From: Haloprofundus halobius
GTDB taxonomy: Archaea > Halobacteriota > Halobacteria > Halobacteriales > Haloferacaceae
DNA: 64,000 bases
Direction of reading: 5' to 3'
Assembly (NCBI RefSeq): GCF_020097835.1
Contig: NZ_CP083668.1
Span: 1-64,000 of the forward strand
Part shown: positions 1,706 to 18,717 of the stretch, in pieces
Layout: every line of letters begins with the position of its first letter
Position numbering within the stretch: the stretch's first letter is position 1
Made by a program: the position numbers and the translations under genes
The notes under the pieces: model-generated
What the model saw: the letters and a program-made list of their open reading frames with translations, nothing else
What the model was told of the DNA's origin: nothing
Database searches by the model: none

Positions 1706-1772
1706 CATTCACTGGAGCATTGGGGTCAATGACAGAAGTCTTATTACGAATTATCTATAACACATAAATAGG

Positions 1773-2309
1773 ATGTCGAAATCACCTGCCCACTCTGGTC
1801 GGCCACCAATTCAGCAGCTTCAGACGGTAGTTGATCTTCTTGAGACGCCTACTCTTGCCCGGATCTACGTGTACGTCTCACAGAACGGTCCTGTTACTGT
1901 TGCCCAACTCATTGACACCTTGGGTGTTCCGCAAGGAACGGCCTACGACTACGTTCAGAAGCTCGAAGCTGCTGGTATTGTGACCAAAACCCGTGAGCAA
2001 CGACCCTACGAGTACGAAACCGATCCGATCTCGCTTACGCTCTCTACAGACGGCGAAACCCAAACAGTTACGCCAGCGCTCATCGCTGCTGTCGCTCGTC
2101 GCGATGAAGACGAGGACATCAATGTCTACATCGACCGCCACGGTCTCGATGGCCTCGCAGTTGCTCTTGAGTACGCATATGAGTACGTTGACGGCACGGT
2201 CAATAATCGGATTGCAGCCCGTGAACTCGACCTTTCCCCACTTGAGGCCGAGATTATTCTTCAGGCACTCGAACCAGTCGCAAAAGCATACGCCGACCCG
2301 GCTGAATGA
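1773..2309 (+). CDS. winged-helix DNA-binding protein, probable antitoxin/regulator of the PIN gene
   Basis: 178 aa. Residues about 15-75 form a winged helix: LLETPTLARIYVYVSQNGPVTV, then LIDTLGVPQGTAYDYVQKLEAAGIV as the recognition region. The remainder is acidic with predicted helices (LEYAYEYVDGTVNNRIAARELDLSPLEAEIILQ split by short loops). It is translationally coupled to the downstream PIN-domain gene by a 4-base ATGA overlap, the usual arrangement of antitoxin or regulator followed by toxin. The TTAACCAACAA inverted repeat 68 bases upstream is a plausible autoregulatory site. The wHTH call is firm; the antitoxin role is inference from the pairing. Confidence 0.75.
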   Translation: MSKSPAHSGRPPIQQLQTVVDLLETPTLARIYVYVSQNGPVTVAQLIDTLGVPQGTAYDYVQKLEAAGIVTKTREQRPYEYETDPISLTLSTDGETQTVTPALIAAVARRDEDEDINVYIDRHGLDGLAVALEYAYEYVDGTVNNRIAARELDLSPLEAEIILQALEPVAKAYADPAE

Positions 2310-2833
2310 GAACTGTCTATATCGCGGACACTGGTGTATTTGTTCGGTGTGGTGGGCCGGACAAGAACAAATTCCAGCAACTTCGACGAGCGCTTCGACA
2401 AGCTGAAGTTTCACTGCGGATTCCCCAGCGTGTCTACGAAGAACTCGGTGGTGACCCCGCCGCTGAAGAGTATCCCTCCGGAAATATCCCGTATCCTGAT
2501 GGGTTCGAAGAGGGCTGGATTACTGTCGCCGACGACCTCGACTATACGAATTCGACCGTTTCAACTGTCATGGACGATGCGCGCCGATTCATTGCCAACG
2601 AAACTGATCGCAAGGAGGATATCACCGAAAAGGCAGATACAGCACTGGTCGGTCTTGCAGCCCAATTGCTCGATATTGACGAAGCAGACCACGTCGTCTT
2701 GTTGACGACGGACAAGCCAGCTGGTCGCGCAGCGGAAACCTTACTTCCTACCCATGGATTCGCTGATCGTATCGAATACCGGTACGTCAGCGAAGAGTAT
2801 CTGGAGGCTATTACCGCCGAGGAATTTCGATAA
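2306..2833 (+). CDS. PIN-domain ribonuclease-like protein
   Basis: 175 aa. PIN-fold acidic positions are visible: IADTGVFV with Asp8, RVYEEL with Glu46-47, the helix EKADTALVGLAAQ with Asp about 111, and LLTTDKPAGRAAE with Asp about 137. PIN proteins are Mg-dependent single-strand RNA nucleases, often VapC-like toxins. The gene overlaps the preceding winged-helix gene by ATGA. At 175 aa it is longer than a typical 130-aa VapC, so it may be a regulated RNA nuclease rather than a classical toxin. Its stop is followed within 10 bases by a mobile-element relic. Confidence 0.75.
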   Translation: MRTVYIADTGVFVRCGGPDKNKFQQLRRALRQAEVSLRIPQRVYEELGGDPAAEEYPSGNIPYPDGFEEGWITVADDLDYTNSTVSTVMDDARRFIANETDRKEDITEKADTALVGLAAQLLDIDEADHVVLLTTDKPAGRAAETLLPTHGFADRIEYRYVSEEYLEAITAEEFR

Positions 2834-2840
2834 CCCTCTA

Positions 2841-2908
2841 GTGTCTAAAGACACGAAAATCCCGCACGCGTTGGGAATCTCCGCCCTAAGGGTGGGGAGG
2901 AACTCAAC
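2841..2908 (+). mobile_element. probable right-end relic of an IS200/IS605-IS1341 (TnpB) element
   Basis: Three successive hairpins fill 68 bases: GTGTCT-AA-AGACAC (2841-2854), an imperfect TCCCGCACGCGTTGGGA (2859-2875), and CTCC-GCCC-TAA-GGG-GGAG (2880-2900), followed by AACTCAAC. This order resembles the 3' end and omega-RNA scaffold region of haloarchaeal TnpB elements as I know them. No tnpB or tnpA remains next to it. Assignment rests on pattern memory, not on a search. Confidence 0.5.
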
Positions 2909-4193
2909 TGCCCTCTCCGAAGGCTGTATCCAGCTGGTCTCGCATGAACTCTCGTCGGACTCGACGAGACCGTGAGTCGGAAAGATAATTTTGCATAACC
3001 ACTCGCGGATCACTACTACCTTGCTCTGCAGCGATTTCGTCGACGCCTTCGAGAACGCCTTCGAGGACTGCTGTATAGGTATCGTACCAGAAGCGACGAC
3101 AAAGTTGCGGACTCGGGCGCTCACCCTCGATTCGATCAGGAAGGCCTGCCTCCGATGCGAGATTTTGGAACCTGTTTCGAATCGTATCTCGTGTCACATG
3201 TGGTGTTTCACCCTGCGAAGATGGGAATAAGTATCCCGTCCACGTCTCATCTTCCGATAGCTCGTCGATTCGGGAGTCTAGGACGTCCATCCCAAACAGG
3301 AGAGACACTTCGCCGGGTCCGTTCTTGCGGCTCTCGAACGTGATGAAGGGGACATCGTCTTCGGGGACGTCACGATGGAACTGCGAGACATGGAGTGCTG
3401 CGGCCTCACTCGCTCGAAGTCCCCAGCCAGCTAATGCCACCACGAGCAGCTGTTCTCGCGTCGTCCCCGACGCCTGCATAAGCTTCCGAATATGATTCGC
3501 CGAAAGAGAAGGAGTCGGGGAATCTTCTACTTCCCACTTGAATTCGTCGTAGAGGCCGCTCGCAGGGTTCATCGAGGCGACCCGCCGACCGACCAGATGC
3601 TGATACCAGGCGTCGACGATGCGTCGCACACGCTGGAGAGTCTGGGCACTGTACTCGTGTTCGGTTCCCTCGTTCAACCAGTCGAATGCCACATAGCACG
3701 CATCAACGGCTTCGTAGGCTGGATTCTCTCGGTCTCGTTGGATCGGTGTGAGGAGGTCGTCCGTCCCGTTCGCCTCCCCGTAGGCACGGACGTAGAGATT
3801 CAGTCGCGTTCGGAGCGCGTCGACAGACGACGTCGCTAGGCTGTATCGTGATTTCCGCCGGTTGAGGAACTGTTCGAGGGCGTCGATTGTTGTATCGTCC
3901 GTTGTTGCCCATGTGTAGCCTTCTTCATCGTCACCAAGCCCGAGGTCATCGTTCCAAAACTCCCCGAACGAGCGGTCGTGATGGCGACGGAGAGCCGCGA
4001 GAAACGACCGTGCCTCGCGATCCTGAAACCACTGATGGGTCGGTTTCTCGCTCGTCGGATTGATACCCTCTGCTTCGAGGCAGGGGGCAATCTCGTCCCA
4101 GTATAGGTCCGTGAAGTCCTCAAGCGAACACGATGTCCATCGGATGCCGTCGAATGAGGGCATGCGCTCCTGTTCGGTTTCCGAACGGCTCAT
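2904..4193 (-). CDS. tyrosine recombinase/integrase (XerC/D-like), catalytic His replaced
   Basis: 429 aa. Residues 1-230 hold the SAM-like core-binding region; the catalytic domain follows, with Arg260 (GWGLRASE), Lys290 (ESRKNG), the box II segment at 361-367 (SPQLCRR, Arg366) and the nucleophile Tyr403 (MQNYLSD). The histidine of the usual HxxR is Gln363. The enzyme would recombine short attachment or resolution sites, for integration or for resolving plasmid multimers. It is transcribed away from the Argonaute block and ends inside the IS605-like relic. The 600-base region upstream with overlapping hairpins is the natural place to seek its site. Activity with Gln in place of His is possible but unproven. 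Confidence 0.85.
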   Translation of the reverse strand: MSRSETEQERMPSFDGIRWTSCSLEDFTDLYWDEIAPCLEAEGINPTSEKPTHQWFQDREARSFLAALRRHHDRSFGEFWNDDLGLGDDEEGYTWATTDDTTIDALEQFLNRRKSRYSLATSSVDALRTRLNLYVRAYGEANGTDDLLTPIQRDRENPAYEAVDACYVAFDWLNEGTEHEYSAQTLQRVRRIVDAWYQHLVGRRVASMNPASGLYDEFKWEVEDSPTPSLSANHIRKLMQASGTTREQLLVVALAGWGLRASEAAALHVSQFHRDVPEDDVPFITFESRKNGPGEVSLLFGMDVLDSRIDELSEDETWTGYLFPSSQGETPHVTRDTIRNRFQNLASEAGLPDRIEGERPSPQLCRRFWYDTYTAVLEGVLEGVDEIAAEQGSSDPRVVMQNYLSDSRSRRVRREFMRDQLDTAFGEGS

Positions 4194-4333
4194 TGGACGT
4201 TTTCTGGTATTCGGTTGTTCAGATATCGAGCAAGGCGAATTCCTGATAGAAGCCCGCTCGCGGCCTCGTATTGTGATTCTAAGAGTGGCATAGTGGGGAT
4301 GTTCAGGGTTTCAGTTGGATTCCTCATCAGTCT

Positions 4334-4370
4334 GTGGGTTTGGCTGACTGGCAGAGTCTGCCAAACCCAC
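4334..4370. repeat. overlapping inverted repeats in the integrase-Argonaute gap
   Basis: GTGGGTTTGGC (4334-4344) pairs perfectly with GCCAAACCCAC (4360-4370); inside and overlapping, TGGCAGA (4349-4355) pairs with TCTGCCA (4357-4363). The two hairpins are mutually exclusive. The surrounding 4194-4803 has no convincing gene on either strand. Candidate recombinase site or regulatory RNA switch; no direct evidence. Confidence 0.5.
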
Positions 4371-4803
4371 GGTTGTTATGTAAAAAGTCGCTGGGGAAGC
4401 CATACATCGTATACCGCTATACAATTTCTCAGCTCTGGAAGTCCCAGAGTCTCGGAGTTTAGGTTGTGATGCGTGCCTTATTTTCACATCCGATTCATCT
4501 GGGTAGGCTTTCGTCTGGTGATTAGTGGACGGCCACAGTGAATATCGTTCAGAAAGGTCTTCTGAGTGATATAAAATCAGAACCGAAAGAAAGCTCCTCT
4601 TTCACAGCTAGTTCCGGAGAATAGAAGGCACGCATCAAAACCATCCTCCGAGGTTGTGAAGTCCCCTGTATAGCCCAGTCTCCCATAGACTGATTGGTGA
4701 TGGACTGTCTGGTGAGTCTGAAGAATGGCTGACGACTCGATACCGCCGTTTTCAGTCATAATCGACGACCGCCTGGTGTGGCTCAATTGGGTTTGAAATC
4801 GTA

Positions 4804-7047
4804 TTACAGATATGCGGGACCGTGGATGACTCGCCCCGGATCTACGTAGCCCTCTCGAACGTACTTCGCTGCCATATCTGCATACTTGATCGGGACTGGG
4901 AGCCGGGTACTCCGAGCGGGGCTCCCGTAGTGGACCTCCGAGAGCCAGTACGCCTGTCGAGTGATCGTCTCGATGTCCGTAGGTCCGGAATTCTTGATGA
5001 GTCGGAAGGTACGTGGCGTCCCGACGCTGTTGTCATCGTTCGTTTCGGGTTTCCCGAAGGCGTGGAGAATCCCCTGTTCTCGCTCACGGTCGACGAAGCC
5101 GACCCCTTTCTGCGCGATATTGAACCTCGTTCCGTTGAAATTGGCAATGCGAGTCTGGTCTCGCTTCCGTACGCTCACGATGTCGAATTCTGCGTCGAGG
5201 CCGCTGAGTCCATCTCGAATCTCATCGATATCCTCGTGGACCTTGCCATCGCGGAAGATGGTCAGGCGGTTGAGTGGTTCGTCCTGCTCGTCTGCGAAGT
5301 CGTAGATGAGGTCACGGACGAACTGCTCGACCTGGTCTGCGACGAACTTCTCACCGGCTTGTTGTGTCGTCGACTCTGCTGCGAACGTCGATCCATCCCG
5401 CATCACGATGCTCGCACTCGCCCCCGAGTGCTGACCTGTTTGTGAGTCGCGGGTGACGTCCAAGCCCATGAACGCTTGCGTCTCCCCGGGCATATCCTCG
5501 ATTTGCCATGGTGTCCCCCCAGCTTTTGCGACCACAGCGCTCACGATGTTCGTGAATGAGTCGCTCGGAATCTTCTGGGAGGTCATGTTGATCTCCTCGG
5601 CGGTCGATTTTTGGAGCATCTGGGTCGGGATGCCCTGTCGCATCAGCGTCCGCTTGAGTTCGCTGTATGGATCTTCGAATCCATCGAAGTCGTCTACGGC
5701 CCCCTTGTCGGGGACCATCGCGACGACTACATCTGTTTCCTCACGTAACTGCTGGTAGACATCGGTGTACTCAGAAATGCGGCCTAGTTCGTAGGGATAG
5801 CCCGATGTTCCTGCTGGTGCCCCCCACTGTGAGAGCGTCTTCGCGAGAAGTCCGATGAACTGCTTGTAGGTGTCTTCGTAGTGTGTCGGGTAGAGGACGC
5901 CCACCCAGTAGTCCTCCGGTGATTTGAACACACCGTGGTCCTTGAGACCAGTACTCGGCTTTGAAGCATGCGCACCACCACCGTAGACAAGCCGCGATTG
6001 GTTCCCTCGGATATCGAGGTAGTCGAACCCGTGGTTCGTTGGCCCCGGTTCGAACTGCAGGTCGAACCCTGGCAGAGGAGAAAGATCCTCAACAAACGTT
6101 TTCAGGTAGTCAAACCGGGTATCAGGCTTCATCGCCCGTCGTGAGGTGAATAGGTTGTGAAAGTCGTAGTCCTGCTCTTCGACCTGCTCTGTCCGAGGAC
6201 TCAGTTTCAATGCTCGGGGAACCTGGTCACCGGTGAACCCACCGTAGTCGACTTTCACTAATCGCGGATTCGTTTCGATGAGTCGCTGTCGGACGTCTTC
6301 TTCAAGCAGACCCTCGTGGTACTCCGAAATCACTTCTCCGAGCGTATCGGAGCGATCGTTGTACCGGAGGTCACTCCATCCACGGAGGTATCCAGTCGAA
6401 GCATTACCGTAGACTTCTGTATCGTGTTCGACCCGCCACGACGGGAGGTCACTACCCTCTGAGACCATCTTGTCCAGTGACTTCATCGTCACGAGGTTGT
6501 GGCTCGCTTCGACTTGGAGAAGAACCGTTCCATCAGCGGTGATGTGTACTTTCGCAGTGTGTTTCCGCTGAGCTCCAAAGTCGAAGCCATCGCCTCCGAA
6601 CTCGATTTCGCGGCGGATGATTCCTTGGAGGAACTGGAAGGAGTAGAGCGAGTCAGGGATTGCCCGCCGAAGCGAGGACTGAACCAGTCCCTTGATTTGT
6701 TGGCGGTCACGCTCAGTGTCTGGGGTGAGCGTAATCTCGTCGACTTTCTCAGGTTTGACGGTGTGCCCTTTCGCCTGCACTGATCGGGACAACTCGGTCA
6801 ACGAGATGACGTGCATCGTCCCCGAGCTGCCCACGGGCGTTCCGTGTTCTCGGTCAAGCCAGTAGGCCGCAGACTGAGTGAGCGTCTGTGGGTCTGTCGA
6901 CTGATCGCGACCACCGGGGACCGATAGCCGGTAGCGGTTCACCGAGACCTCGGTGAGACGTGAGTCGGCCTTCGAGTGAAAGAGATAGACGCCCGGATCG
7001 ACCGAGGCCTGCGCTTCGACGGGGAGTTCGTTGGATTCCGTGGCCAT
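4804..7047 (-). CDS. ago: long prokaryotic Argonaute, NgAgo-like, catalytically complete
   Basis: 747 aa Argonaute, a guide-directed nucleic-acid endonuclease. The PIWI domain contains the full DEDD set: Asp530 (FMGLDVTRD), Glu566 (QQAGEKFVA), Asp600 (IFRDGKVHED) and Asp724 (IKYADMAAKY); the spacings 36/34/124 resemble those of Thermus Ago. The MID domain shows Gln476 and Lys508 (AVVAKAGGTPW) of the guide 5'-phosphate pocket. The C-terminal half aligns by eye with Natronobacterium gregoryi Ago (GLDV, GEK, HRDG/FRDG, DIETxTRQ, YAD). At 747 aa it is shorter than NgAgo (887 aa), and the N-terminal OB-like extension of NgAgo appears absent. It is the last of four minus-strand genes after the AddB-like, AddA-like and 305-aa genes. 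Host defence or plasmid-copy processing by DNA interference is the likely role. Confidence 0.95.
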   Translation of the reverse strand: MATESNELPVEAQASVDPGVYLFHSKADSRLTEVSVNRYRLSVPGGRDQSTDPQTLTQSAAYWLDREHGTPVGSSGTMHVISLTELSRSVQAKGHTVKPEKVDEITLTPDTERDRQQIKGLVQSSLRRAIPDSLYSFQFLQGIIRREIEFGGDGFDFGAQRKHTAKVHITADGTVLLQVEASHNLVTMKSLDKMVSEGSDLPSWRVEHDTEVYGNASTGYLRGWSDLRYNDRSDTLGEVISEYHEGLLEEDVRQRLIETNPRLVKVDYGGFTGDQVPRALKLSPRTEQVEEQDYDFHNLFTSRRAMKPDTRFDYLKTFVEDLSPLPGFDLQFEPGPTNHGFDYLDIRGNQSRLVYGGGAHASKPSTGLKDHGVFKSPEDYWVGVLYPTHYEDTYKQFIGLLAKTLSQWGAPAGTSGYPYELGRISEYTDVYQQLREETDVVVAMVPDKGAVDDFDGFEDPYSELKRTLMRQGIPTQMLQKSTAEEINMTSQKIPSDSFTNIVSAVVAKAGGTPWQIEDMPGETQAFMGLDVTRDSQTGQHSGASASIVMRDGSTFAAESTTQQAGEKFVADQVEQFVRDLIYDFADEQDEPLNRLTIFRDGKVHEDIDEIRDGLSGLDAEFDIVSVRKRDQTRIANFNGTRFNIAQKGVGFVDREREQGILHAFGKPETNDDNSVGTPRTFRLIKNSGPTDIETITRQAYWLSEVHYGSPARSTRLPVPIKYADMAAKYVREGYVDPGRVIHGPAYL

Positions 7048-7267
7048 CTACTGATTGACAGAAGTGGTTGAATAAGTCGTTTTTCATACTGTACAAGCCA
7101 CCGTCACGACAGACGCAGCTATACTCCCGATTACGTTTGTTGGAGAATTCCCACGTGGGTGTCGTCTGCCTCTACTCAGCACCAACACGTTTTGCAGTAC
7201 GGTTCCCCAGCAGTGGGTGTACAGCGATCGGCTCCAATTAAGAGTCGCACCGATGTCCAGACTGAGA

Positions 7268-10200
7268 TTACGAGGGCGGGAGCATCTCTGTCCGAGCCGA
7301 AATTGCGACTGCGATTTCGGCTTCGATGGTTTCGACCTCTTCGGGCGTCCACTCGTGATACCACGCGTCCCCCAGCGCGGTGAACACGAGCGAGACTTCG
7401 ACTGCCCGGCCCGTCCCCTGTTGATGGAGCGCGGCGGCGTACGCCTTCATCTGATTCGCGTAGTATGCGGCGTCAGTGTCGAGTTTATCGGGAGAAACCT
7501 CGCCGGTCTTGTAATCGATGATATGGTAGGTCTCAGAGGTGACGATCAGGTGGTCGATATATCCAGAGATCTTCCCACAGTCAAACTCCGCGGTGACGTA
7601 GAGTTCATCGTACTGGTGCTCAACCTCATCAGACGTGTGCTCATCGACGTATGCCATCCCTCGTCGGGCGTGGGCGCGAACTCGTTCTTCGGTCGCTGGA
7701 GTAAGTGATTCGTCGACTCCTGCATCGACGAGCGACTGGTCGATAAGACTCGACCAATGCGCTTCCGGTGGGCGGAGCTCGCAGAGTCGATGGACCAACT
7801 CGCCAAAGTGGAGCGCGTCAAGGTCTCCCTCCTCTGCCCGTGGGTCTATCTGGTTCTGAGGCTCGGAAGCAGCTGCGTCAGCACCCGGCGTGTCTTCGGC
7901 GTGCCGATACTCAGGGATATCAGCTTGCGCATCGGGTGCGGTGACGTGGAGTGTCCGGGTCTCCTCGTCGAATTCGAGTACGCCGTAGTCGGCGAGAAGC
8001 GAGGCAAGATCGGTCGCAGAGAGTCGGAATTGTGCCTCAGAGGCTGGGGGGCTCGGCGAGAGCTCGATGACAGGGTCAACATCAGGGTCGGAGGGTGGCT
8101 GCTCAGCTGGGGGCGTCGGAAGTGAGACAGTGTACTCACCGTCACCGTACGAGCGCTGAACGTGGGTTTCCGAACCGAGAGTGGTACAAACGTTGTCCGG
8201 AAGCAGCTCCGGCTGGACCCAGTCACGCCAACTGGAAGCTGACTCTGGGTCAGGCTCTTCGAGATTCGTCATCGTGGGGCCTTCATCTGCATCAGCCAGG
8301 TCGTGTAGCCCACTCAGGAGGAGGTGGTCCCTCGCACGAGTACACGCGACATACAGGACACGCTTCTCCTCGGCGCGCTCCTCGGCCCGGCGTTGCTCGC
8401 GAATCGTCTCGCGAGCGATTGTGTCGACCATGTCGAACGGATCGTTCGGACTGGGCGCTTTCATACCGACGGCGTACTGCTCACCGATTCGCTCGAATTC
8501 GACTTTCCCTCCACCGAGGCTGGCGTCATCTTTGAATTTGCGGCCAATCCCGGGCACGGCGACGAACGGGAACTCCATCCCTTTCGCGTCGTGAATCGTT
8601 AGAATCTGGACACCGTCTCCTGTGGTGTCTGCTTCGCTTTCGCGTCCGCCCAACTCGATGCGGCGTTCGATACGGTTCACGAGCGTCGTGAGACTGTGAA
8701 CGCCGTCATCACTCCAGTCTCGAAGCTGCTCTCGGAACTTCTCGATGTTTGCGACTGCTTGCTGTGGTCGTTCATCGGCGCTCACACTAATCAAGTATCC
8801 AGTGTCTTCGAGGATGCGCGACAGATACGCTGCCCACGACCCATCGAATCCTCTTGATTCGTCGTCGCTTAGGCCGGCCAGTTGTCGCCACTTCTGGAGG
8901 AGACTGTATGCGTCCTCCAGGTCATCATATTCACTCATCGCGAGTGCCTCCCACAGTGGTTCGTCACGACACTTAAGCTGCGCCAGCGTATCGTCGGTGA
9001 GTCCAAACAGTGGCGAGCGAAGCGTAGCGTACAGCGCTCGCTCGTCAGTTGGGTCGGCGAGCGTTCTGAAGAGATTCAACAGCGCTGTGATTTCGGTCGT
9101 GTCGTAGAACCCGGTTCCAGAAGAAACCGAGTATAGAACGTCGGCGTCTTCGAGCGCTCGCTCATACTTTTTGAGATGGGTTCGACTCCGAATGAGAATC
9201 GCGATATCACTGGGCTCAATATCACGGGACGCTGGCACCTCTTCGTCTTCATCCACTTGCTGATCGTTCGGTTCGTCTACAGTGGTGTCATTGGCCTCGT
9301 CGTCTTCACTACTGGTTGAGTAGACTTGGATCGGGTCAGCCAAGACTTGTGAGAGCCGGGCTGCGAGCGCCATCGCTTCAAGTTCTGCGTCGTGTTCTGG
9401 TGTCGCAGTCGCGAACTCCTCATAGTGATCACACCGTGCTGCTCTGAGGTCGGCATCTGTTGGCACTGCGAGATACTCAACGGAGCCGATTTCGTCGGAG
9501 TCGTTGCGAGCGGGCGTCAGTGACTGTGGGGATGCCTCGTACGGCTCACCGTTTTCTTCGAAGACGGCCTCGAATAGCTGGTTGATCGATTCGAGTACTG
9601 TCGGGAGTGTTCGGAAGTTCGTCGAAAGCTGATCATCTTCCGAGTTCCGAGCGTCACGAGAAACCCGTTCGAGTGTCGCAGCAGTCTCGCGGAACTGTGT
9701 GACGTCTGCGTTACGGAAGCGGTAGATGCTCTGTTTGATGTCACCAACGACGAACACGTTTTGGGCATCGAATGTTTCTCGGTCACTGGCCGTCAGGAGC
9801 TTGATGAGATCCCATTGACGTGGATCAGTATCCTGGAACTCGTCGACCATCACATAGGCGAACTGTTCGCGTAGCTCCGCTCGTATGTCGGCGTTCACCG
9901 GATCATCGAGGAACTCGACAGTCATCGAGATGAGGTCAGTGAAGTCGACTGCGTTCTGTCGCTGCTTCCGGTCGCGATACTCATCGGCGATGAGTGAGGT
10001 GAGTGTGGCGAGTGCGTGGACGAACGGGAAGCTATTGGCTTCGACTTCCAAATCCACGTTGACTGCGTGTTCCTCGGGTTGAAGCACCTCGACCAATGTT
10101 TCGAATGCACTGTCGAACTCCGTCTTTCGCGGATGATCACCCCAGCGAGAGGTAGCTCCCGTATAGCTCGCGTACCGTTCGCCATTGCCCTTCGTGAGAT

Positions 10201-11071
10201 GCGTACTGAGCTCCGCAATCGTCGACTGTTTAGCCCGCGACGCAACCCCATCATCGAAACCAGGCTCCAGACAGGCGACAGCACCCTCAGCACGCTTCCA
10301 AGTCTGTCCACCAGTTTCGATATCTGGAGGGTTCTCGACGATTTTACGTAACGTGCTGGCTGCGGTGACGAACTCAGGGTCGGAGAGTCGTTCTGCAGCG
10401 ACGTCTGGGTCGATGGGGTGAAGCGAGGATTCAACGAACGCGAGATATTCCTCTTCGGTCGCGTCTTTCCATCGGTCAGCCCATTCGAGACTCTCTGGAC
10501 GCTCTGCTAAGAGATCAGTGAGGACATCGTGAAGTTGACTTCGTGAAAATCGCCGGGCCAGCGTCTGGGTCGCCTCATGGGTTTCGTACTCTTCGAGAGC
10601 AGTACTAACTGTGTCATGGAGCAGTGCTGTCGACTCGTTTTCGTCGAGTGTCTCAAAGCCTGGGTCGACAGCGTCGATCGTTAGTGCATGTTCACGCAGT
10701 AATCGTGCACAGAACCCGTGGACAGTGTGGATGTAGCCCTGCTCAAGTTCGTCTGCAACCGTCCGCCATGCATCGAACTCGTCGACACCGAGTGAGCCAA
10801 CGCGATTCGTGATTTCCTCACGAACGCTTTCCTCTAGGTCGTTTGCTGCTCGTTCTGTGAATGTCGTCGTGAGAATGTGCTCGGGAAGTAGTTGGGTGCC
10901 ACCACTCCCACCGTCAGTTTGTTCTGCTAACGACCGTTTGACCATCTCTAGATACCGCGCAGTCAACGTGGTGGTCTTGCCCGTCCCTGCACCAGCAGTC
11001 AATGTAACGTTCCGATCGAGCCCATCGACAGCGCGTTGCTGCTCATCGGTTAGGTCCTCGTAGGAGACCAT
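7268..11071 (-). CDS. AddA/RecB-like UvrD-family helicase with C-terminal PD-(D/E)XK nuclease
   Basis: 1267 aa from the ATG at 11071. Superfamily 1 helicase motifs: Q motif LTDEQQRAV, Walker A AGAGTGKTT (Lys32), Walker B/motif II VMVDEFQDTDPRQW, motif VI VLYVACTRARDHL. The C-terminal nuclease has HFGELVHRLCE, GYIDHLI (Asp1173), IIDYKTG (Asp1186, Lys1188) and QMKAYAAAL, the RecB/AddA nuclease signature. The start is chosen at MVSYEDL because it lies one base after the stop of the AddB-like gene; a start 27 bases upstream is possible but would overlap. With its partner it should unwind and degrade double-stranded DNA from ends. Argonaute follows after a 220-base gap. Asp/Glu-rich inserts (residues 600-650) suit a halophile. 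Confidence 0.9.
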   Translation of the reverse strand: MVSYEDLTDEQQRAVDGLDRNVTLTAGAGTGKTTTLTARYLEMVKRSLAEQTDGGSGGTQLLPEHILTTTFTERAANDLEESVREEITNRVGSLGVDEFDAWRTVADELEQGYIHTVHGFCARLLREHALTIDAVDPGFETLDENESTALLHDTVSTALEEYETHEATQTLARRFSRSQLHDVLTDLLAERPESLEWADRWKDATEEEYLAFVESSLHPIDPDVAAERLSDPEFVTAASTLRKIVENPPDIETGGQTWKRAEGAVACLEPGFDDGVASRAKQSTIAELSTHLTKGNGERYASYTGATSRWGDHPRKTEFDSAFETLVEVLQPEEHAVNVDLEVEANSFPFVHALATLTSLIADEYRDRKQRQNAVDFTDLISMTVEFLDDPVNADIRAELREQFAYVMVDEFQDTDPRQWDLIKLLTASDRETFDAQNVFVVGDIKQSIYRFRNADVTQFRETAATLERVSRDARNSEDDQLSTNFRTLPTVLESINQLFEAVFEENGEPYEASPQSLTPARNDSDEIGSVEYLAVPTDADLRAARCDHYEEFATATPEHDAELEAMALAARLSQVLADPIQVYSTSSEDDEANDTTVDEPNDQQVDEDEEVPASRDIEPSDIAILIRSRTHLKKYERALEDADVLYSVSSGTGFYDTTEITALLNLFRTLADPTDERALYATLRSPLFGLTDDTLAQLKCRDEPLWEALAMSEYDDLEDAYSLLQKWRQLAGLSDDESRGFDGSWAAYLSRILEDTGYLISVSADERPQQAVANIEKFREQLRDWSDDGVHSLTTLVNRIERRIELGGRESEADTTGDGVQILTIHDAKGMEFPFVAVPGIGRKFKDDASLGGGKVEFERIGEQYAVGMKAPSPNDPFDMVDTIARETIREQRRAEERAEEKRVLYVACTRARDHLLLSGLHDLADADEGPTMTNLEEPDPESASSWRDWVQPELLPDNVCTTLGSETHVQRSYGDGEYTVSLPTPPAEQPPSDPDVDPVIELSPSPPASEAQFRLSATDLASLLADYGVLEFDEETRTLHVTAPDAQADIPEYRHAEDTPGADAAASEPQNQIDPRAEEGDLDALHFGELVHRLCELRPPEAHWSSLIDQSLVDAGVDESLTPATEERVRAHARRGMAYVDEHTSDEVEHQYDELYVTAEFDCGKISGYIDHLIVTSETYHIIDYKTGEVSPDKLDTDAAYYANQMKAYAAALHQQGTGRAVEVSLVFTALGDAWYHEWTPEEVETIEAEIAVAISARTEMLPPS

Positions 11072-11072
11072 T

Positions 11073-14000
11073 CTACTCCACCTCCACGGCTTCTTCAAGA
11101 TCGATATTTCGCGCTTTCAATGGGATGTAGGCCGAATTTCCAGTGTCGTCTATCGCCTCAATAGTGTCTCTGCGTTGGTGTGAGCGGACGTCACAGACTT
11201 GGGCGTAATCACAGTACCGACATCCAGCGTCCGCTGGGTCAAGCACTGTTGGATGGTACTGTCCATCCGTGATTCCTGTTGCGAGGTCTCCAAGGCGCTG
11301 AGGCGTCGTCTCCTCGATGAATCGACGGAATGCCTCGTGAGTCTCAAAGTGCGGATACGAATACCGCAACAATGGTGACTCGACGTCATCGCTGCCGTAG
11401 TATTCGGCCATCTCCTGTGACGTGAGTAGACTTCGTCGAGAATTCACCGAACTCGGTGGCGACACCTGGTAGTACGCTCCCCCAACGACCTCTACGTCGT
11501 CAAGGGCGTCTTCGGCCATCAACGCGTACAGTTGGAGTTGGAACTTCAGGCCACTCAGGGCATCGCTCTCACTTGGAATTGAGTTCCCAGTTTTGTAATC
11601 TCGAACAACGACCTGTGTGGGGTCGGTCCCAGGGACGGTTTCAACGCGGTCGATGAGGCCATGTATCGGAATGGATCCCTGGGGAGTTTCGACGTTGGTT
11701 GAGTTCTCGCTGATCGGCGTTCCTGCGTCGTATGGATTCCCGATGCGCCCCTCGAACCACGCTGGCCTAGCGGTTGTCTTAGCAGGTTCGTCGAACTCGT
11801 GTTCTAAGAACCGATAGAATAGCCCACGTGCATGTTGGGCGTCATTCTGGGCTTCAGTGGAATGGTAATATGGATTCGTCTCGGGAGATCCTAATCCAGC
11901 CAAGACCGTTCGGAGCCATTGCTGATGGAATGCCGTCTTGCTGTATCCGTCAAAGGTCTCTGTGAGTCTGTCAAGTGCGACCTCAAGCAAGCGTTCTTGT
12001 CGGTCGTCGAACTCACCACCAGGATCAACTGGATCGCCCAGACTGGATTGTAACGAGCGGTAGTAGTGTTCGAGTACGTCGTGGATATAGGAGCCACGAA
12101 GACCAGCATCAGGCTCGCGTGTAATTGGGTCAGGGGCTTTGATACCGAGGACTCGCTGCATGTAGTAGTTGAATCCACAGGCAGCGTATGTTTCGAGACG
12201 GCTCGGACTATATGGTTCACGGGCAGCCACTTCGTGCACATTCGCAACCGTCTCCGTGGTGAGTTGTCCATCGTACGGCGTCAAGTCGGGACTCGCTCGT
12301 GCGGCCGCACATTCTACACCTGCGCGGATTCGTGACTGCTGGTCGCTATCGAACGTTCCAGCATCAACGGCTTGCATAACGAGTTCGTCAGTTCGAGTCT
12401 CGGATGTCCCACCAATTGATCGCTGTACGTCTTCCTGACACCCTGGCTGGGAGTCTACAGTCTCGACAGTTATCTCGGGGAGGTTTACAACCCGTCGAAG
12501 CTCGGTTAGGACATCGGCTTCGACGTACGGCTCACCACTCATGCTTCGCTGGGGAACCGAGAGCTGAATTGACGCTTCACTTCCCAGGAGTGCACCGAAA
12601 TGGTATCGGGCCTCCGCAGTCACATCCAGCTGCTCGAAATCAGGATGTGCATCATAGATCGGCTGGGTGAACGCCATCCGATCGGCATTCGACGGGAAAT
12701 GTGCTGCCGTAACCCCGAGAATGTACAGCTGGTCGAAATCTCGAGCTACTGCCTCGGCGAGTCCACAGACAACAATGGATTGATCGCTGGGACGGCCCGT
12801 TGCCGGAATCGAGATGTCGTAAAGCACTCTTTCGAGACGATCCAGACTATTGCCTAGCGTTAGATCGGCTCTCTTGGCTGTGAGTTTGAGAGTTTCGAGC
12901 ACCCGATTTAGCCTGTCCTGAGCGCTTTTCTCAAGCAATCTAAGTCTCTGTGAGTGATCCTCGGAGAGGGATTCAGTTACTCCGAGTTGCTCGAACAGTG
13001 CATTGAGTGTCTCAGGAAGTGTCTCAAGCGACTCATCAGCAAGTGCTTCGATATTACTGACGAGTAAGTTGACCGCTTCTGCGATGTCATCGTCGGCGTG
13101 TTCGAGCGTCGAGTCAAGTCGAGCAGTCTCAACACGAGCCGCAACGCGACTGAGATGCTGGTAATCCAGCTCGTCGCTGAATCGAGTGCAGTCGACTAGA
13201 GGGTTCGTGAGCAGGTTGAGCACCGAATCAAGGGTCCGAGGTTCGTGGGCGAGTTGACACACCGTTTGGACGAGGTCGCCCGTCGCTGTCTCCGTGAGTG
13301 GAACATCAGTCTGTCTACTCATGGGAAGGTCGTAGGAATCGAATACCTCGCAAACTCGTCGGGCATACTGCACCGGACTTGGTAGAACGACGCCAATATT
13401 TTCCGGTTGGATACCGGATGCGAGTTGGGTTCTGATGCTTCGGGCGACCACCCGAGTCTCCTCGGGAACGGTCTCTGGTCGGATAATGGTGAGATCCAAC
13501 GCTGTTGCCTCAATATCACCGGTTGCTGGCGATTGGCTGGGATGCCGATATAGTGAGCGAACGATTTGTCGGCGGGCGTCGATTGAGTGAGAGTCAGTCT
13601 CGGAGAGATACCGCCGTGAGAAGCCTAACTCATAATATCTCTTGGCGACTCGCTCGACTCCTCGGTCAATACCGGTCGGGGAATCGGAGTCAACTTGCAT
13701 CGGAAGCAGTGCAATTACTGGCCAACATTCTGCAACCGACCTGATGAGCTCAGCCTCCAGTGCGGTGAACTGCGTAAATCCACTAAGCACCACTGCATCA
13801 ACCGCCGGAAACACCTCATCGGGAGTGGATGGCCCTGACACAACTTGATGCATCCGCTCAGATCGATATGTCTCTTGGACGGTCTCAGCGAGAATCTCTG
13901 CTCTAGCGGCCTCGATTTCATCGGCGAGTTCCTCAACATGAGACGCATGGGAAGACAGCCCCTCGTCAGTAAGTCGACTTCGCATCTCATCTGCAGAGAG

Positions 14001-14405
14001 CAATCCAGCAAACTCGAGTTCTGTGAAAAGTGCTTTTGCCTCCTGTACGAGGCCTGAACTAGGGAACCGATCGTTGGTGAAGAGTGGATTAGCGGAGGAG
14101 TCGATACCTTCGACCCCGAGTTCGGCAAGCCGAGACAGCAGTGGTTGATCGATATGGGTGACGGGGCCTTTGTACCGCTCTTGTTCGTACCACTCTGAGA
14201 CCATCCCATCAAGCGTATCGACGCGTATCGCTGCCGACGGTCCGAAGTCTCGCCATCGATCTTTCACCGTCTCTTTTGGATGGTCTCGTGGGGTTAGATA
14301 TAGGAGGCTCTCAGGATGTGTCCCAACATCAGTACTGAGTTCCTCGAACGCCTCAGACTCAAGGGTAGAAAAATCAGAACCAGTAATCAACAGACGGTGA
14401 AACAT
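11073..14405 (-). CDS. AddB-like nuclease subunit with Fe-S cysteine set
   Basis: 1110 aa. The N-terminal two thirds resembles a degenerate UvrD-like helicase without an obvious Walker A, as in AddB and RecC. The C-terminal nuclease has YIHDVLEHYY (His775), HGLIDRVE (Asp919), VVRDYKTGN (Asp936, Lys938) and FQLQLYAL. Cys743 (TYAACGFNYY) together with Cys1062, Cys1065 and Cys1071 (GCRYCDYAQVC) matches the four-cysteine iron-sulfur staple of AddB nucleases. One base separates it from the AddA-like gene, so the two make a heterodimeric helicase-nuclease with two nuclease sites. This kind of enzyme is uncommon in archaea, which mostly use HerA-NurA/Mre11-Rad50, so it probably came by transfer and serves the plasmid rather than the chromosome. 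Confidence 0.85.
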   Translation of the reverse strand: MFHRLLITGSDFSTLESEAFEELSTDVGTHPESLLYLTPRDHPKETVKDRWRDFGPSAAIRVDTLDGMVSEWYEQERYKGPVTHIDQPLLSRLAELGVEGIDSSANPLFTNDRFPSSGLVQEAKALFTELEFAGLLSADEMRSRLTDEGLSSHASHVEELADEIEAARAEILAETVQETYRSERMHQVVSGPSTPDEVFPAVDAVVLSGFTQFTALEAELIRSVAECWPVIALLPMQVDSDSPTGIDRGVERVAKRYYELGFSRRYLSETDSHSIDARRQIVRSLYRHPSQSPATGDIEATALDLTIIRPETVPEETRVVARSIRTQLASGIQPENIGVVLPSPVQYARRVCEVFDSYDLPMSRQTDVPLTETATGDLVQTVCQLAHEPRTLDSVLNLLTNPLVDCTRFSDELDYQHLSRVAARVETARLDSTLEHADDDIAEAVNLLVSNIEALADESLETLPETLNALFEQLGVTESLSEDHSQRLRLLEKSAQDRLNRVLETLKLTAKRADLTLGNSLDRLERVLYDISIPATGRPSDQSIVVCGLAEAVARDFDQLYILGVTAAHFPSNADRMAFTQPIYDAHPDFEQLDVTAEARYHFGALLGSEASIQLSVPQRSMSGEPYVEADVLTELRRVVNLPEITVETVDSQPGCQEDVQRSIGGTSETRTDELVMQAVDAGTFDSDQQSRIRAGVECAAARASPDLTPYDGQLTTETVANVHEVAAREPYSPSRLETYAACGFNYYMQRVLGIKAPDPITREPDAGLRGSYIHDVLEHYYRSLQSSLGDPVDPGGEFDDRQERLLEVALDRLTETFDGYSKTAFHQQWLRTVLAGLGSPETNPYYHSTEAQNDAQHARGLFYRFLEHEFDEPAKTTARPAWFEGRIGNPYDAGTPISENSTNVETPQGSIPIHGLIDRVETVPGTDPTQVVVRDYKTGNSIPSESDALSGLKFQLQLYALMAEDALDDVEVVGGAYYQVSPPSSVNSRRSLLTSQEMAEYYGSDDVESPLLRYSYPHFETHEAFRRFIEETTPQRLGDLATGITDGQYHPTVLDPADAGCRYCDYAQVCDVRSHQRRDTIEAIDDTGNSAYIPLKARNIDLEEAVEVE

Positions 14406-14566
14406 ACTCTCCCGGATACACGTATAGGATATGAAAGTTCGGGAAGAAAGTGATATTAACCATCTTTGGTAGTGTGATTTGATCTAAAACAATACTTACT
14501 GAACCAGTGCATATTAACGCGGTGGGGAACCTGACCACGTATTTGAGTTGTTCATATGCTCTCTGT

Positions 14567-14582
14567 GGGCTTTGGAAAGCCC
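14567..14582 (-). terminator. possible hairpin terminator after the 305-aa gene
   Basis: GGGCTTT (14567-14573) pairs with AAAGCCC (14576-14582), 110 bases past the stop of the minus-strand gene at 14693. It has no clear T-run, so it may instead be a regulatory hairpin in the 287-base gap before the AddB-like gene. Confidence 0.3.
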
Positions 14583-14692
14583 AAGTAACGACTAGAGCAC
14601 CAATTACTCATCCTCATAGATTTCTTCATATGCCCGATTGAGCCTAGTAGCGATCCGCAACTTGCCACCTGCTTGTCTTTCTCTGCGAGTAT

Positions 14693-15610
14693 TCAGATTG
14701 CCTTTCGGACTACATCGTCGAACGCAATTAAAATCTGTTCAGGGACGAACTGTTCGAAGTTGACGCACCCTTCGGCGAATCCAATCGTCACTCGTGGGTG
14801 CAGCGGTTCACCTGTTTTTGGCGAACGAACGTCAGTCCGGAGAGACACGAGGCCGGTAGCTGCATCAAGCTCAGTATCGCCTCGGCGAAGCAGGTCTTCG
14901 ACGATTGAGTCGACGCGAACGTCCGAGATGTTCCCAGACTTGGGTTCCTTCGAGCGGACCTCGATTTCTCGGGTGTTATCGTAGGCGTTCGTATTCTGGA
15001 GTCGAAGGGTCGAATAGCCGTCGACGCAGGCGTCTTCAAACCGGCCTCTGAATCCGTTATCCAGGAACGAAACTCGTGTTACGTCGTCCAGCTCGAAGTA
15101 ACTCTTGAATGCCTGGACGGTCGCATCTGCCGTCCCTTTGTCTGGGGCGCGAACTGCAAGGAGTTGCGTTCTCGGCTTGAACGTTGCGACGGTCGTCGGT
15201 CGGTCTTCCTTCGTGAGGGTCAGTTGGGCCTGTGATCCCGTTTCGGGTACGTTGCAGACGACGAAGATCCGGTCGTGTTCGCTCGTGACGGTCTGGACCT
15301 CTGACCCGTAGACGCCCGGCGAACCGGCGTCGCCGACTCGACCCGTCGCGCCCTCTGGCGACACTTGGTGCAGTCCGTCCACGCGATAGTAGTAGACCGT
15401 GCGGGCACCCGCAAATTGGAGCTGTGACGCAGCTCGTCGCAACTGTATCTGTGAGAGTTCGTTGAGGGCGTCGGCAAAGCTCCGGTCATCCACATCCATC
15501 GAGATACCTGCTGCCTGAAGGACGCGCCGACGAGCCGCTTGTGAGGGAAGACCTTGGATGAGTTCCTGCGGAGAGGCGTCATTCTGCGTTGGATCCAGTG
15601 GGAGGTTCAT
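14693..15610 (-). CDS. uncharacterised 305-aa protein upstream of the AddAB-Argonaute block
   Basis: Not recognised. 305 aa, no transmembrane segment or signal peptide. Residues 15-65 are helical (ELIQGLPSQAARRRVLQ, LNELSQIQLRRAASQL); residues 65-190 look beta-rich with a GDAGSPGVYG turn and IFVVCNVPE; a later segment has RGRFEDACVDGYSTLRL and DVRVDSIVEDLLRRGD. The compartment is cytoplasmic. It lies on the same strand as the AddB-like, AddA-like and Argonaute genes and would be transcribed first, but 287 bases and a hairpin separate it from the AddB-like gene, and 196 bases separate it from the coiled-coil gene before it. It could be an accessory or sensor for either neighbouring system. No function is assigned. 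Confidence 0.75.
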   Translation of the reverse strand: MNLPLDPTQNDASPQELIQGLPSQAARRRVLQAAGISMDVDDRSFADALNELSQIQLRRAASQLQFAGARTVYYYRVDGLHQVSPEGATGRVGDAGSPGVYGSEVQTVTSEHDRIFVVCNVPETGSQAQLTLTKEDRPTTVATFKPRTQLLAVRAPDKGTADATVQAFKSYFELDDVTRVSFLDNGFRGRFEDACVDGYSTLRLQNTNAYDNTREIEVRSKEPKSGNISDVRVDSIVEDLLRRGDTELDAATGLVSLRTDVRSPKTGEPLHPRVTIGFAEGCVNFEQFVPEQILIAFDDVVRKAI

Positions 15611-15806
15611 ACTCCTCGTCTCAGTACCAGTATCTTACAATTTCTCACTTACTGTAGGGTCCAAGGCTGAACCTTGTGAAGAGCTCTTGTACGGGTTTTC
15701 CACGACTTGGAAGGAGTGTAGACAACGATGTTGGAAGGGAACTCCACGGTCTGTTCGCCTTCTGTATCGAATTCTCCTCCATAGAGAACTGGTGTTCTTG
15801 GGGGGG

Positions 15807-16970
15807 TTATTGCTCAGGTTTCACAGTACAATTCCTACATCGAAGCCCGTATTTTATCGATTGAATCGGGTTTCGTTCGTCGAACTCCTCATTGCACGAT
15901 GAACACGGCACGGTGTCCGTGGCCCCGATACCGCTCCCGTATCCGAGAGTTACGGTTCGAGTTAACCCATCTTCAATTAGGTCGAGGTCAATTTCCCCCC
16001 GCTCGTATACGACTTCCGTCAGAGTGAGGGGTGTAATCTGCACGTCAAGGGAATGTCTCTCTCGTATCTCGCGTTGTCGTTTCGGGAACCCCCTGTCACG
16101 GCGGTCTTGCAAATCAGTGAGAGCGGTCTCAATTTTATTGAAGTCCGATTTGAATTCCTTTCGTTTCTTGAGAGCCCGTACGCGAGCATCCTGATCATCC
16201 GAACTAATCGCCTCACTCAGCTCTTCAATCTTAGACGACAGGTTCGAATACTCATCCTCTAGTTCCTGAATCCGTTGCTGTTGCATCTGGCGATACTCCT
16301 CGACTTCCGCATCAGCAGCACGCGAGGCTTCCTGATGGATTTCATCAATTCGGTCTTCGATTCCATCAAGAAGTCGGTCACGAGCCGTATCGAGAAGCTG
16401 CCGAATCTCCATCTCCGCCAGTTGTGGCCGGCCACCGGTGGCTTTCTCCGTATCCGTCGAAGTCGTGTTAAGGAACGTTTCTGCCAACTGCGGCAGGTGC
16501 TCCTCTGAACGCGCGTCTACAGCAACAGCACGGAGGAGTTCCTGTTGATACTCGCTGACGGTTTCAATCCCAACTCGGAACAGAAATACGATTGCTGTAC
16601 GATCATAATACGGAGTAAACTGCACGTCCTGCACTTCGATAGCACCGTCCTGTATCCAATTCGGAACGTTGATTTCCGCACCTACTTCTATCGAAATTTT
16701 CCCCGTCGGACATCGTTCAGCCGCTTCACGGAGTATTCGCTGAAAGAACGCGCTCTCTGGATGCAGAGACTCTGTGTTATTCTCTTCACCTGGACCCTCC
16801 CCACAGATGAGGGTATGACGCCCTGTGGTGAGCTCAGAGTCTGCACCATCAGGAACCGTAACTTTCCAATGGCCCTCATTCTTCTCGATTGAACATCCAA
16901 GAGAGTGGAGGTACCGTTCGGTAAACCACTCTACTGTGGATTGTGTGACGGGGATTGCGGCATCAGTCAT
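15807..16970 (-). CDS. coiled-coil protein with C-terminal zinc ribbon, partner of the SNF2 helicase
   Basis: 387 aa from the ATG at 16970, which overlaps the end of the SNF2 gene by 8 bases (ATGACTGA), so the two are co-translated. Residues 1-170 form a globular beta-rich region; about 180-290 is a long charged coiled coil (DGIEDRIDEIHQEASRAAD, then LEDEYSNLSSKIEELSEAI); the C-terminus carries CSSCNEEF and CRNC, a zinc ribbon. Coiled-coil plus zinc-ribbon proteins next to SNF2 enzymes may act as DNA-binding or scaffolding subunits. The exact family was not recognised. A start at 17057 would add 29 residues overlapping SNF2 codons and is not preferred. Confidence 0.75.
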   Translation of the reverse strand: MTDAAIPVTQSTVEWFTERYLHSLGCSIEKNEGHWKVTVPDGADSELTTGRHTLICGEGPGEENNTESLHPESAFFQRILREAAERCPTGKISIEVGAEINVPNWIQDGAIEVQDVQFTPYYDRTAIVFLFRVGIETVSEYQQELLRAVAVDARSEEHLPQLAETFLNTTSTDTEKATGGRPQLAEMEIRQLLDTARDRLLDGIEDRIDEIHQEASRAADAEVEEYRQMQQQRIQELEDEYSNLSSKIEELSEAISSDDQDARVRALKKRKEFKSDFNKIETALTDLQDRRDRGFPKRQREIRERHSLDVQITPLTLTEVVYERGEIDLDLIEDGLTRTVTLGYGSGIGATDTVPCSSCNEEFDERNPIQSIKYGLRCRNCTVKPEQ

Positions 16971-18717
16971 CGCTGGCCCCCAAATCGAAGCCTTCGAAGA
17001 CGCCGCTGTTGAATTCTTCCAGTTTGCTGGCGAGGTCCCGTTGCTCCTGCAGATCAACTGCCATCGCGTCGAAATCGTTTTCCAAGTCGATTTCGGAGCC
17101 AGCGTTCACGAGACGTTCGAAGATCTCGTCTTCGAAGCTTGTTCCGGACTCTTCTAATCGACTCAGAATCGAACTCAGTTCACCGACACTCTGTTTGAAG
17201 AGGTCTATTTTGTGGTAGAGTCGTTCCAGCACGTATTCTTCGATAGTATCTTTCAGAGCCATATTGAAGATGTACACGTCCCGTTTCTGTCCAATCCGGT
17301 GAACACGCCCGATGCGCTGTTCGACTCGCATTGGGTTCCATGGTAAATCCATGTTCACTAGGATGTTACAGAACTGGAGATTACGCCCCTCGCTCATCGC
17401 GTCGGTCGAAACAAGGATTCCACCCTCTTCTTCAAAATTCTCCACAATCTGTTCCTTCTCACTGCTTGAGTGACCGCCGTGGAATGCATGTACGGTGTAT
17501 CCTTCTGCGGCGAGTCGGTCAAGCACCTGCTCTTGAGTCGCTCGGAACTGGGTAAAGACGATAACCCTGCCCATTTCAACGTTGTCACGAGCCTCTTCGA
17601 CGATTTCCAACAGTCGTTCCTGTTTCGTGACCGTTTCAACCTCTTCGATTAGGTCTAAGATGGTTTCCAGTTCGTCGGCGTGTGTGAGTTCGGATTGTTC
17701 GTAGAGACGCTTCTCGATAGTCTCCTTGAGCGCTGCCGGGCTGCTGACAACCTCCTTCTGAAGAAGCATTAACACCAATTTCTGGCCCTGGTCCTGGCTG
17801 TAGGCACCTTTAACGTACTCAGAGACCGCCCGATATAGCTCGCGTTCCTCGGGTGTTGGCTCAAACGTTCGTGTATCGATGGTGCGATCTGTAAAATCGA
17901 TGTCCGTGTCTTCACGCCGGTTCCGAATCATCACCCTGTTCAGCCGTTCGTGCAGTTCCTCTCGATTCACGAGCGTCTCCTGATTACTGTTCACGAAGTA
18001 GTGGTGGAACACATCCCGCGTGCCGAACAGTCCGGGGCGAAGCAGAGAGACGACGTTATAGAGGTCTGTCAACTCGTTTTGGATTGGCGTTGCCGTTAGG
18101 AAGAATGCGTAGTTGTACGAGAGTCGGTCGATGAGGTCGTAGCGGTCTGTCTCTTCATTCTTGACGTAGTGTGCCTCGTCGAGTACCAGCACGTCCCAGT
18201 CACGGTTGAGAACCGTCTCACGGTGTCTCTCGCTCTTCGCAGTGTCGATGCTCGCAATAATGTAGTCGTGAGCGTCGAAATCTTCAAACTCGTCGTCATA
18301 GTTGCAGACGAAGTCGAGACCAAATTTCTCACGGAGTTCTGCCTGCCACTGTTTGGCCAACTGTGCCGGAGTGAGTACGAGGACGGACTCGTCCGTATCT
18401 CGAAAGTGCATCTCCTTGAGAATCATCCCGACCTCGATGGTCTTTCCGAGTCCGACCTCGTCAGCGAGAAGCGCCTTTCCGTCCATCTCGAAAAGGGCCC
18501 GATACGCGGCGTCCACTTGATGTTCGAGTAGCTTGACCGAGTTCTCGTCCAACTCTTTCAGCGACCGGAGTTCAGAGTCTGGCTGGCCAGCTTGAAGACG
18601 GACGGCCTGCACACTCTGAAGATGATTACCATTGGTAGTCTCCGTAGACAAAGAGTCGAGAAGATTGTCCGCAGACTCATGCGTAACCTCAACATCAACG
18701 AGGTCGTAACTTCTCAT
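16963..18717 (-). CDS. SNF2/HepA-family DNA translocase
   Basis: 584 aa. Complete Swi2/Snf2 ATPase: LLADEVGLGKTIEVGMIL (Walker A, Lys92), LVLDEAHYVKN (DEAH 180-183), FLTATPIQNEL (motif III), VIVFTQFRATQEQVLDRL (motif IV), QRIGRVHRIGQ (motif VI). The start at 18717 (MRSYDLVDVE) is preferred; the frame continues 60 bases upstream without better support. SNF2 enzymes move along double-stranded DNA and recur in defence systems such as DISARM (DrmD). It lies head to head with the COG1483/DUF499-type ATPase across 144 bases, which suggests one functional module with a shared divergent promoter. The C-terminal 100 residues are acidic helices. Confidence 0.9.
   Translation of the reverse strand: MRSYDLVDVEVTHESADNLLDSLSTETTNGNHLQSVQAVRLQAGQPDSELRSLKELDENSVKLLEHQVDAAYRALFEMDGKALLADEVGLGKTIEVGMILKEMHFRDTDESVLVLTPAQLAKQWQAELREKFGLDFVCNYDDEFEDFDAHDYIIASIDTAKSERHRETVLNRDWDVLVLDEAHYVKNEETDRYDLIDRLSYNYAFFLTATPIQNELTDLYNVVSLLRPGLFGTRDVFHHYFVNSNQETLVNREELHERLNRVMIRNRREDTDIDFTDRTIDTRTFEPTPEERELYRAVSEYVKGAYSQDQGQKLVLMLLQKEVVSSPAALKETIEKRLYEQSELTHADELETILDLIEEVETVTKQERLLEIVEEARDNVEMGRVIVFTQFRATQEQVLDRLAAEGYTVHAFHGGHSSSEKEQIVENFEEEGGILVSTDAMSEGRNLQFCNILVNMDLPWNPMRVEQRIGRVHRIGQKRDVYIFNMALKDTIEEYVLERLYHKIDLFKQSVGELSSILSRLEESGTSFEDEIFERLVNAGSEIDLENDFDAMAVDLQEQRDLASKLEEFNSGVFEGFDLGASDD

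What the first reader, a model, noticed from the sequence alone, without database searches (positions are those of the whole stretch)
4804..15610. Catalytic Argonaute in line with an AddAB-like helicase-nuclease and an unknown 305-aa gene
Seen: four minus-strand genes in a row; Argonaute with Asp530, Glu566, Asp600, Asp724; helicase-nuclease and nuclease subunits with RecB-type DYKTG motifs, 1 base apart. Known: RecBCD/AddAB end-processing produces DNA that bacterial Argonautes can load, and the two cooperate in experiments. Inference: this element brings its own processor to generate guides from, or destroy, invading DNA. I know of no named system with exactly this set.
Basis: partly seen in the sequence, partly recalled or inferred. 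Interest (0 to 1): 0.85.

Follow-up and report, generated by a model that had tools for sequence, protein, structure and literature searches.

The report
Argonaute cassette with AddAB DNA-end processor
On a salt-loving archaeon's plasmid, a DNA-cutting Argonaute defence protein travels as one block with a two-part machine that unwinds and chews DNA ends, and related Argonautes keep similar but different machines beside them, which suggests these proteins depend on a dedicated partner to make their guides or destroy their targets.

Summary
Window 4804-14405 (-) encodes a long Argonaute with an intact DEDD tetrad and a complete AddAB-type helicase-nuclease (one active motor, two RecB-family nucleases, Fe-S cysteines, helicase-dead AddB). 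The linkage is real. In Halomarina oriensis, assigned to another family, DNA homology covers exactly Ago-AddA-AddB (4805-14447) and stops at both edges. AddA lies within 0.5 kb of Ago in 4/19 genomes holding both, against 0/118 for three other defence genes; at 20 kb the excess vanishes. Ago-adjacent AddA falls in at least three places of its tree, so the pairing arose repeatedly. All ten Agos of the window's clade have a helicase/nuclease end-processing module nearby, of four kinds (AddAB, MrfAB-like, RecB/DEAD, Rad50-NurA-HerA-PLD). The 305-aa gene does not belong: it lies outside the cassette and its homologues track the neighbouring DUF1156/SNF2/DUF499 (Hma-like) system. AddAB's closest Ago-free relatives also sit in that system, so AddAB is a plug-in shared by defence systems. 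Best reading: Ago plus a dedicated DNA-end processor that trims ends into guides and/or degrades cut targets. Cooperation, and its direction, is inferred. A related pair (Ago+PLD, APAP) is known; I found no published Ago-AddAB cassette.

The parts
4804..7047 (-). Long, catalytic-type prokaryotic Argonaute (747 aa), DEDD tetrad D530/E566/D600/D724, MID motif Y461-K465-Q476-K508
   Evidence: closest solved structures 6qzk (Protein argonaute) 1.1e-38 and CpAgo 2.1e-35
7048..7267 (-). 220-bp intergenic gap; BRE/TATA-like GAAAAACGACTTATT about 29 bp before the Ago ATG, nearly unchanged in H. oriensis
   Evidence: read by eye; archaeal promoter not scored by a tool
7268..11071 (-). AddA-like subunit: SF1A helicase (Walker A GAGTGKT at 40, DEFQD 419, GDIKQ 452) plus C-terminal RecB-family nuclease (DYKTG 1195)
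   Evidence: (B. subtilis AddA 3u44_A 9.1e-48)
11073..14405 (-). AddB-like subunit: no Walker A (no GKT/GKS), RecB-family nuclease (H775, D919, D936/K938, Q956, Y960) and Fe-S cysteines C743, C1062, C1065, C1071
4805..14447 (-). Cassette: the only DNA block shared with Halomarina oriensis (81% overall; 91-98% up to about 8480, then mostly 61-81%)
14693..15610 (-). 305-aa protein, unknown family; outside the cassette; belongs with the neighbouring Hma-like system
   Evidence: (no hits)

Best explanation
The three genes AddB-AddA-Ago form a mobile defence cassette. AddAB loads on double-stranded DNA ends of invading plasmid or viral DNA, unwinds it with the AddA motor and cuts both strands with its two nucleases. 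The short 5'-phosphorylated single strands so released are loaded by Argonaute as guides. Guided Argonaute then cuts matching single-stranded or replicating DNA, and the new ends are again substrate for AddAB (a feed-forward loop). Shown: gene content, intact active sites, cassette boundaries, repeated independent pairing, and the swapping of AddAB for other end processors in close Ago relatives. Inferred: that the proteins cooperate, and the direction (guide making versus clean-up of cut DNA, or both).
For: Cassette homology with H. oriensis starts at the Ago stop and ends 42 bp before AddB, with unrelated flanks; the 91-98% identical stretch covers Ago plus the AddA C-terminal region, so these moved together. 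AddA within 0.5 kb of Ago in 4/19 genomes with both, versus 0/36, 0/36 and 0/46 for DUF1156, McrC and GmrSD; within 5 kb 6/19 versus 4/118. Co-occurrence 19 genomes against about 11 expected, OR 2.3, p=0.007. At least three separate Ago-adjacent AddA lineages; one clade rejected. All ten Agos of the window clade have an end-processing module of one of four kinds nearby. Thirteen more Agos share a compact PLD-led gene run with an AddA homologue and, where checked, an AddB-type nuclease. Active sites intact. Published: Agos load DNA from RecBCD-processed ends; TtAgo co-precipitates with AddAB (PMC10269773).
Against: Most AddAB-bearing genomes (67 of 86) have no Ago; within 20 kb Ago is not clearly more enriched near AddAB than other defence genes. 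The window's AddAB has Ago-free relatives placed directly behind SNF2-CC416 or beside P305 of the Hma-like system. Ago has a possible own promoter, and in G033 and G391 AddAB is convergent to Ago, so co-transcription is not general. [quoted passage not shown] No expression or biochemical data.
Confidence: 0.55

Rival explanations
1. AddAB belongs functionally to the neighbouring Hma-like (SNF2 helicase / coiled-coil / P305 / DUF499 / DUF1156 methylase) restriction-type system, degrading DNA after restriction, and Ago sits next to it as a passenger in a defence island.
For: In G048 (L120) and G196 (L123) the order is SNF2-CC416-AddB-AddA on one strand; in L118, L122 and L124 P305 and DUF1156 lie beside or near AddB; none of these loci has Ago. 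In the window SNF2-CC416-P305-AddB-AddA-Ago are all on the minus strand. AddAB lies within 20 kb of DUF1156 in 15/36 genomes.
Against: H. oriensis, G033, G391, G013 and G418 carry Ago+AddAB with no SNF2, CC416, P305, DUF499 or DUF1156 in the fetched about 20 kb, and the conserved DNA block excludes those genes.
Confidence: 0.2
2. AddAB works downstream only: Ago makes its own guides by guide-free chopping and AddAB merely destroys the linear products (or repairs self-damage).
For: PMC10269773 states RecBCD is not required for smDNA biogenesis with CbAgo but changes the pattern; PMC10164581 reports that Ago cuts trigger RecBCD processing.
Against: Does not by itself explain why haloarchaeal Agos sit next to so many alternative end processors, although it is compatible with it.
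Confidence: 0.2
3. Independent genes clustered in a plasmid defence island; no functional link.
For: AddAB is commonly in defence islands; at 20 kb there is no clear Ago-specific enrichment.
Against: Direct adjacency is Ago-specific; repeated independent pairing; exact cassette edges; analogous modules near 39/51 Agos versus 5/40 control defence loci (with the caveat that the families were defined from Ago loci).
Confidence: 0.15

Closest known systems
APAP system (haloarchaeal long-A Ago + phospholipase-D protein AgaP; PMC11442185)
   Same: Catalytic haloarchaeal long Ago with a DNA-degrading partner gene; several Ago-PLD loci here sit in a gene run with an AddA homologue and an AddB-type nuclease
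   Different: No PLD gene at this locus; here the partner is a full AddAB; window-clade Agos are 743-782 aa versus 838-951 aa for most others
Clostridium butyricum Ago (CbAgo) acting with host RecBCD (experiments cited in PMC10269773 and PMC10164581)
   Same: Closest solved Argonaute (6qzk; naming from memory); DNA-end processor shapes guides and processes Ago cuts
   Different: There the processor is the host's housekeeping enzyme; here it is encoded beside Ago on a plasmid and moves with it
Bacterial AddAB (B. subtilis 3u44/3u4q)
   Same: AddA helicase plus nuclease; AddB nuclease and Fe-S cysteine spacing C..C.....C
   Different: Scores far below the equivalog cut-offs; AddB lacks Walker A; accessory, in 86 of 391 genomes searched
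pAgo operons with UvrD/PD-(D/E)XK orthogroup og_6 (Ryazansky 2018, PMC6299218)
   Same: A UvrD-type protein with a PD-(D/E)XK motif in pAgo operons was recorded there
   Different: No AddAB complex, cassette or haloarchaeal module swapping described in the passages found

Membership tests
Long-A (catalytic) prokaryotic Argonaute | Piwi domain with complete DEDX tetrad | tested here: met
   D530, E566, D600, D724 invariant in 15 sequences; Piwi 4.8e-23
Long-A (catalytic) prokaryotic Argonaute | MID and preceding N/PAZ region present (full length) | tested here: met
   747 aa; phmmer alignment to 6qzk over 157-736; PADLOC pAgo profile over 12-747
AddAB helicase-nuclease | AddA: active SF1A helicase motifs plus RecB-family nuclease | tested here: met
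   motifs at 40, 419, 452, 1195; 3u44_A 9.1e-48
AddAB helicase-nuclease | AddB: helicase-dead, C-terminal nuclease, four Fe-S cysteines | tested here: met
   no GKT/GKS; DYKTG 936; C743/C1062/C1065/C1071 invariant in 12 sequences
AddAB helicase-nuclease | Score above the NCBIfam equivalog cut-off | tested here: not met
   AddA 335 of 707 bits, AddB 52 of 486 bits: a divergent family, hence 'AddAB-type'
AddAB helicase-nuclease | Chi-like recognition | not testable with these tools
   needs biochemistry
APAP (Ago-PLD) | PLD gene (AgaP) beside Ago | tested here: not met
   no PLD hit in window 1-16000
Hma-like system (for the 305-aa gene) | Genetic linkage to DUF1156 / SNF2 / DUF499 genes | tested here: met
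   homologues near DUF1156 in G013, G048, G160, G196, G135 and G356

The most novel reading that the evidence does not exclude
Haloarchaeal Argonautes form a class of modular systems in which Ago is paired with an interchangeable DNA-end-processing engine (AddAB, split AddAB, MrfAB-like, Rad50-NurA-HerA, RecB/DEAD) that acts as a dedicated DNA 'dicer' making its guides.
Probability: 0.3. Interest if true: 0.85.

Novelty: new variant of a known kind. Interest (0 to 1): 0.62.

Why it matters
How catalytic prokaryotic Argonautes obtain their DNA guides is a long-open question; in tested bacteria the host's RecBCD/AddAB only influences the pool. A natural cassette in which Ago carries its own AddAB, and close relatives in which AddAB is swapped for other end processors, makes the question directly testable by deleting one module at a time. 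It also suggests that partner genes are needed for haloarchaeal Agos to work, which bears on attempts to use them as tools.

Tried and rejected
AlphaFold models of the 305-aa protein and of the 686-aa 'UvrDs' protein failed (pLDDT 45 and 36), so no fold search was made. The hypothesis that UvrDs is the N-terminal half of a split AddB is not established: hhalign gave no match and profile hits to B. subtilis AddB and UvrD1 are weak (E 0.004 and 0.002); only the PDDEXK and AddA parts of the split set are supported. The 305-aa gene as a system member was rejected. No Ago or AddB relatives found in viral contigs. Split AddAB as a core gene was rejected: its AddA part was found in 8/46 genomes. The sigma-70 promoter scan was not used because it does not fit archaea. 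Literature: no paper holds Argonaute + AddAB + haloarchaea; none of the papers retrieved for Argonaute with NurA/HerA was seen to report such operons (titles, abstract starts and a few passages read).

Full report
What is there. The Argonaute is 747 aa with a DEDD tetrad that is invariant in 15 haloarchaeal Agos. Its closest solved relatives are 6qzk 'Protein argonaute' (which I know from memory as CbAgo) and CpAgo. AddA has helicase motifs and a RecB-family nuclease, and is closest to B. subtilis AddA. AddB has the nuclease, four invariant cysteines with the AddB spacing, and no Walker A. Both subunits score well below the NCBIfam AddAB cut-offs, so this is a divergent AddAB-type family, found in 86 of 391 genomes of the class, often on plasmids.

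Cassette. The DNA match is a single block, window 4805-14447, which is Ago, AddA and AddB plus 42 bp; flanks are unrelated and the 305-aa gene is outside. Identity is 91-98% up to about 8480 (in AddA) and mostly 61-81% beyond, which indicates recombination inside AddA with Ago and the AddA C-terminal region exchanged together.

Is it more than defence-island clustering? In 19 genomes that hold both, AddA is within 0.5 kb of Ago in 4, within 5 kb in 6 and within 20 kb in 9. For DUF1156, McrC and GmrSD in AddA-bearing genomes the 0.5-kb counts are 0/36, 0/36 and 0/46; the 5-kb counts 1, 2 and 1; the 20-kb counts 15, 6 and 11. So AddAB is a general island gene, but direct adjacency is particular to Ago. 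Numbers are small and window/H. oriensis are one event; the DUF1156 distance is measured from a domain near one end of its gene, so the 5-kb figure is the fairer one. In the AddA tree the five Ago-adjacent AddAs need at least three placements and one clade is rejected. G033 and G391 have AddAB convergent to Ago, while window, H. oriensis and G418 have all three genes on one strand.

The wider pattern. Maps of 51 Ago loci, families and the Ago tree show that all ten Agos of the window's clade have an end-processing module in the mapped region, of four kinds: AddAB (5), MrfA-like helicase with RNase_H_2 protein (3), RecB/DEAD protein (1), Rad50-NurA-like-HerA-PLD (1). Most are directly adjacent; in G013 the AddAB is 5 kb away. 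The NurA label is by position and size only; it had no Pfam or PDB hit. Thirteen other Agos sit in a PLD-led run with an AddA homologue (hhalign probability 100) and an AddB-type nuclease (96). Over all loci 39/51 carry such a module within about 9 kb versus 5/40 control defence loci. That control is biased, because families were defined from Ago loci, and the 51 are not independent.

The 305-aa gene. Homologues lie beside DUF1156 genes or on the same plasmids as SNF2/CC416/DUF499. It most likely belongs to the adjacent Hma-like system (PADLOC HmaA/HmaC hits). AddAB's own closest Ago-free relatives also sit there, directly after SNF2-CC416 in two genomes. AddAB thus looks like a plug-in end processor used by at least two kinds of defence system; the window holds both partners side by side.

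Mechanism. Established: RecBCD processing shapes the small DNAs loaded by bacterial Agos, TtAgo co-precipitates with AddAB, but RecBCD is reported not to be required for CbAgo guide formation (PMC10269773); Ago cuts trigger RecBCD (PMC10164581); a haloarchaeal Ago system needs its partner nuclease, AgaP, to restrict a plasmid (PMC11442185). Inference: here AddAB is the dedicated partner, supplying short single strands as guides and degrading cut DNA. The gap before Ago has a conserved promoter-like element, so separate transcription is possible.

Limits. No expression data; the literature search covers open-licence papers only; two structure predictions failed; trees are quick ones. From memory and unverified: Methanocaldococcus jannaschii Ago lies next to Rad50/Mre11, which would fit the pattern.

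Noticed in passing
window 14693-28862: Hma-like defence island next to the cassette: P305, coiled-coil CC416, SNF2 helicase, DUF499, GmrSD, AAA, DUF1156 methylase; P305 homologues track this system
   Followed up: partly
window about 8480: Sharp identity step inside AddA between the window and H. oriensis: recombination joining Ago plus the AddA C-terminal region to a different AddA/AddB part
   Followed up: partly
L103-L117 (mainly): A DUF2797 family gene lies near Ago at 14 loci of the divergent haloarchaeal Ago clade, mostly directly upstream and often overlapping by 4 bp (translational coupling)
   Followed up: no
L077-L101 (24 loci): An AAA/DUF4143 ATPase gene near Ago at 24 loci, divergently transcribed from Ago in most, with a gap of about 255-260 bp in many: possible shared control region
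   Followed up: no
L111, L113, L114, L115: MrfB-like exonuclease (RNase_H_2) and MrfA-like helicase genes directly downstream of Ago with 8-12 bp gaps
   Followed up: partly
window 2904-4193; L070, L071: XerA-like tyrosine recombinase of one family near three Agos of the window clade
   Followed up: no
G000:C4:82560-85964: The window's genome also holds an AddA homologue of the split-AddAB kind on another contig; Ago was found only on C3
   Followed up: no
window 31629-34618 and 36562-48448: McrBC-type pair, then a TrbL/TraG/HerA-like conjugation block and a primase-like gene: a conjugative-type plasmid
   Followed up: no
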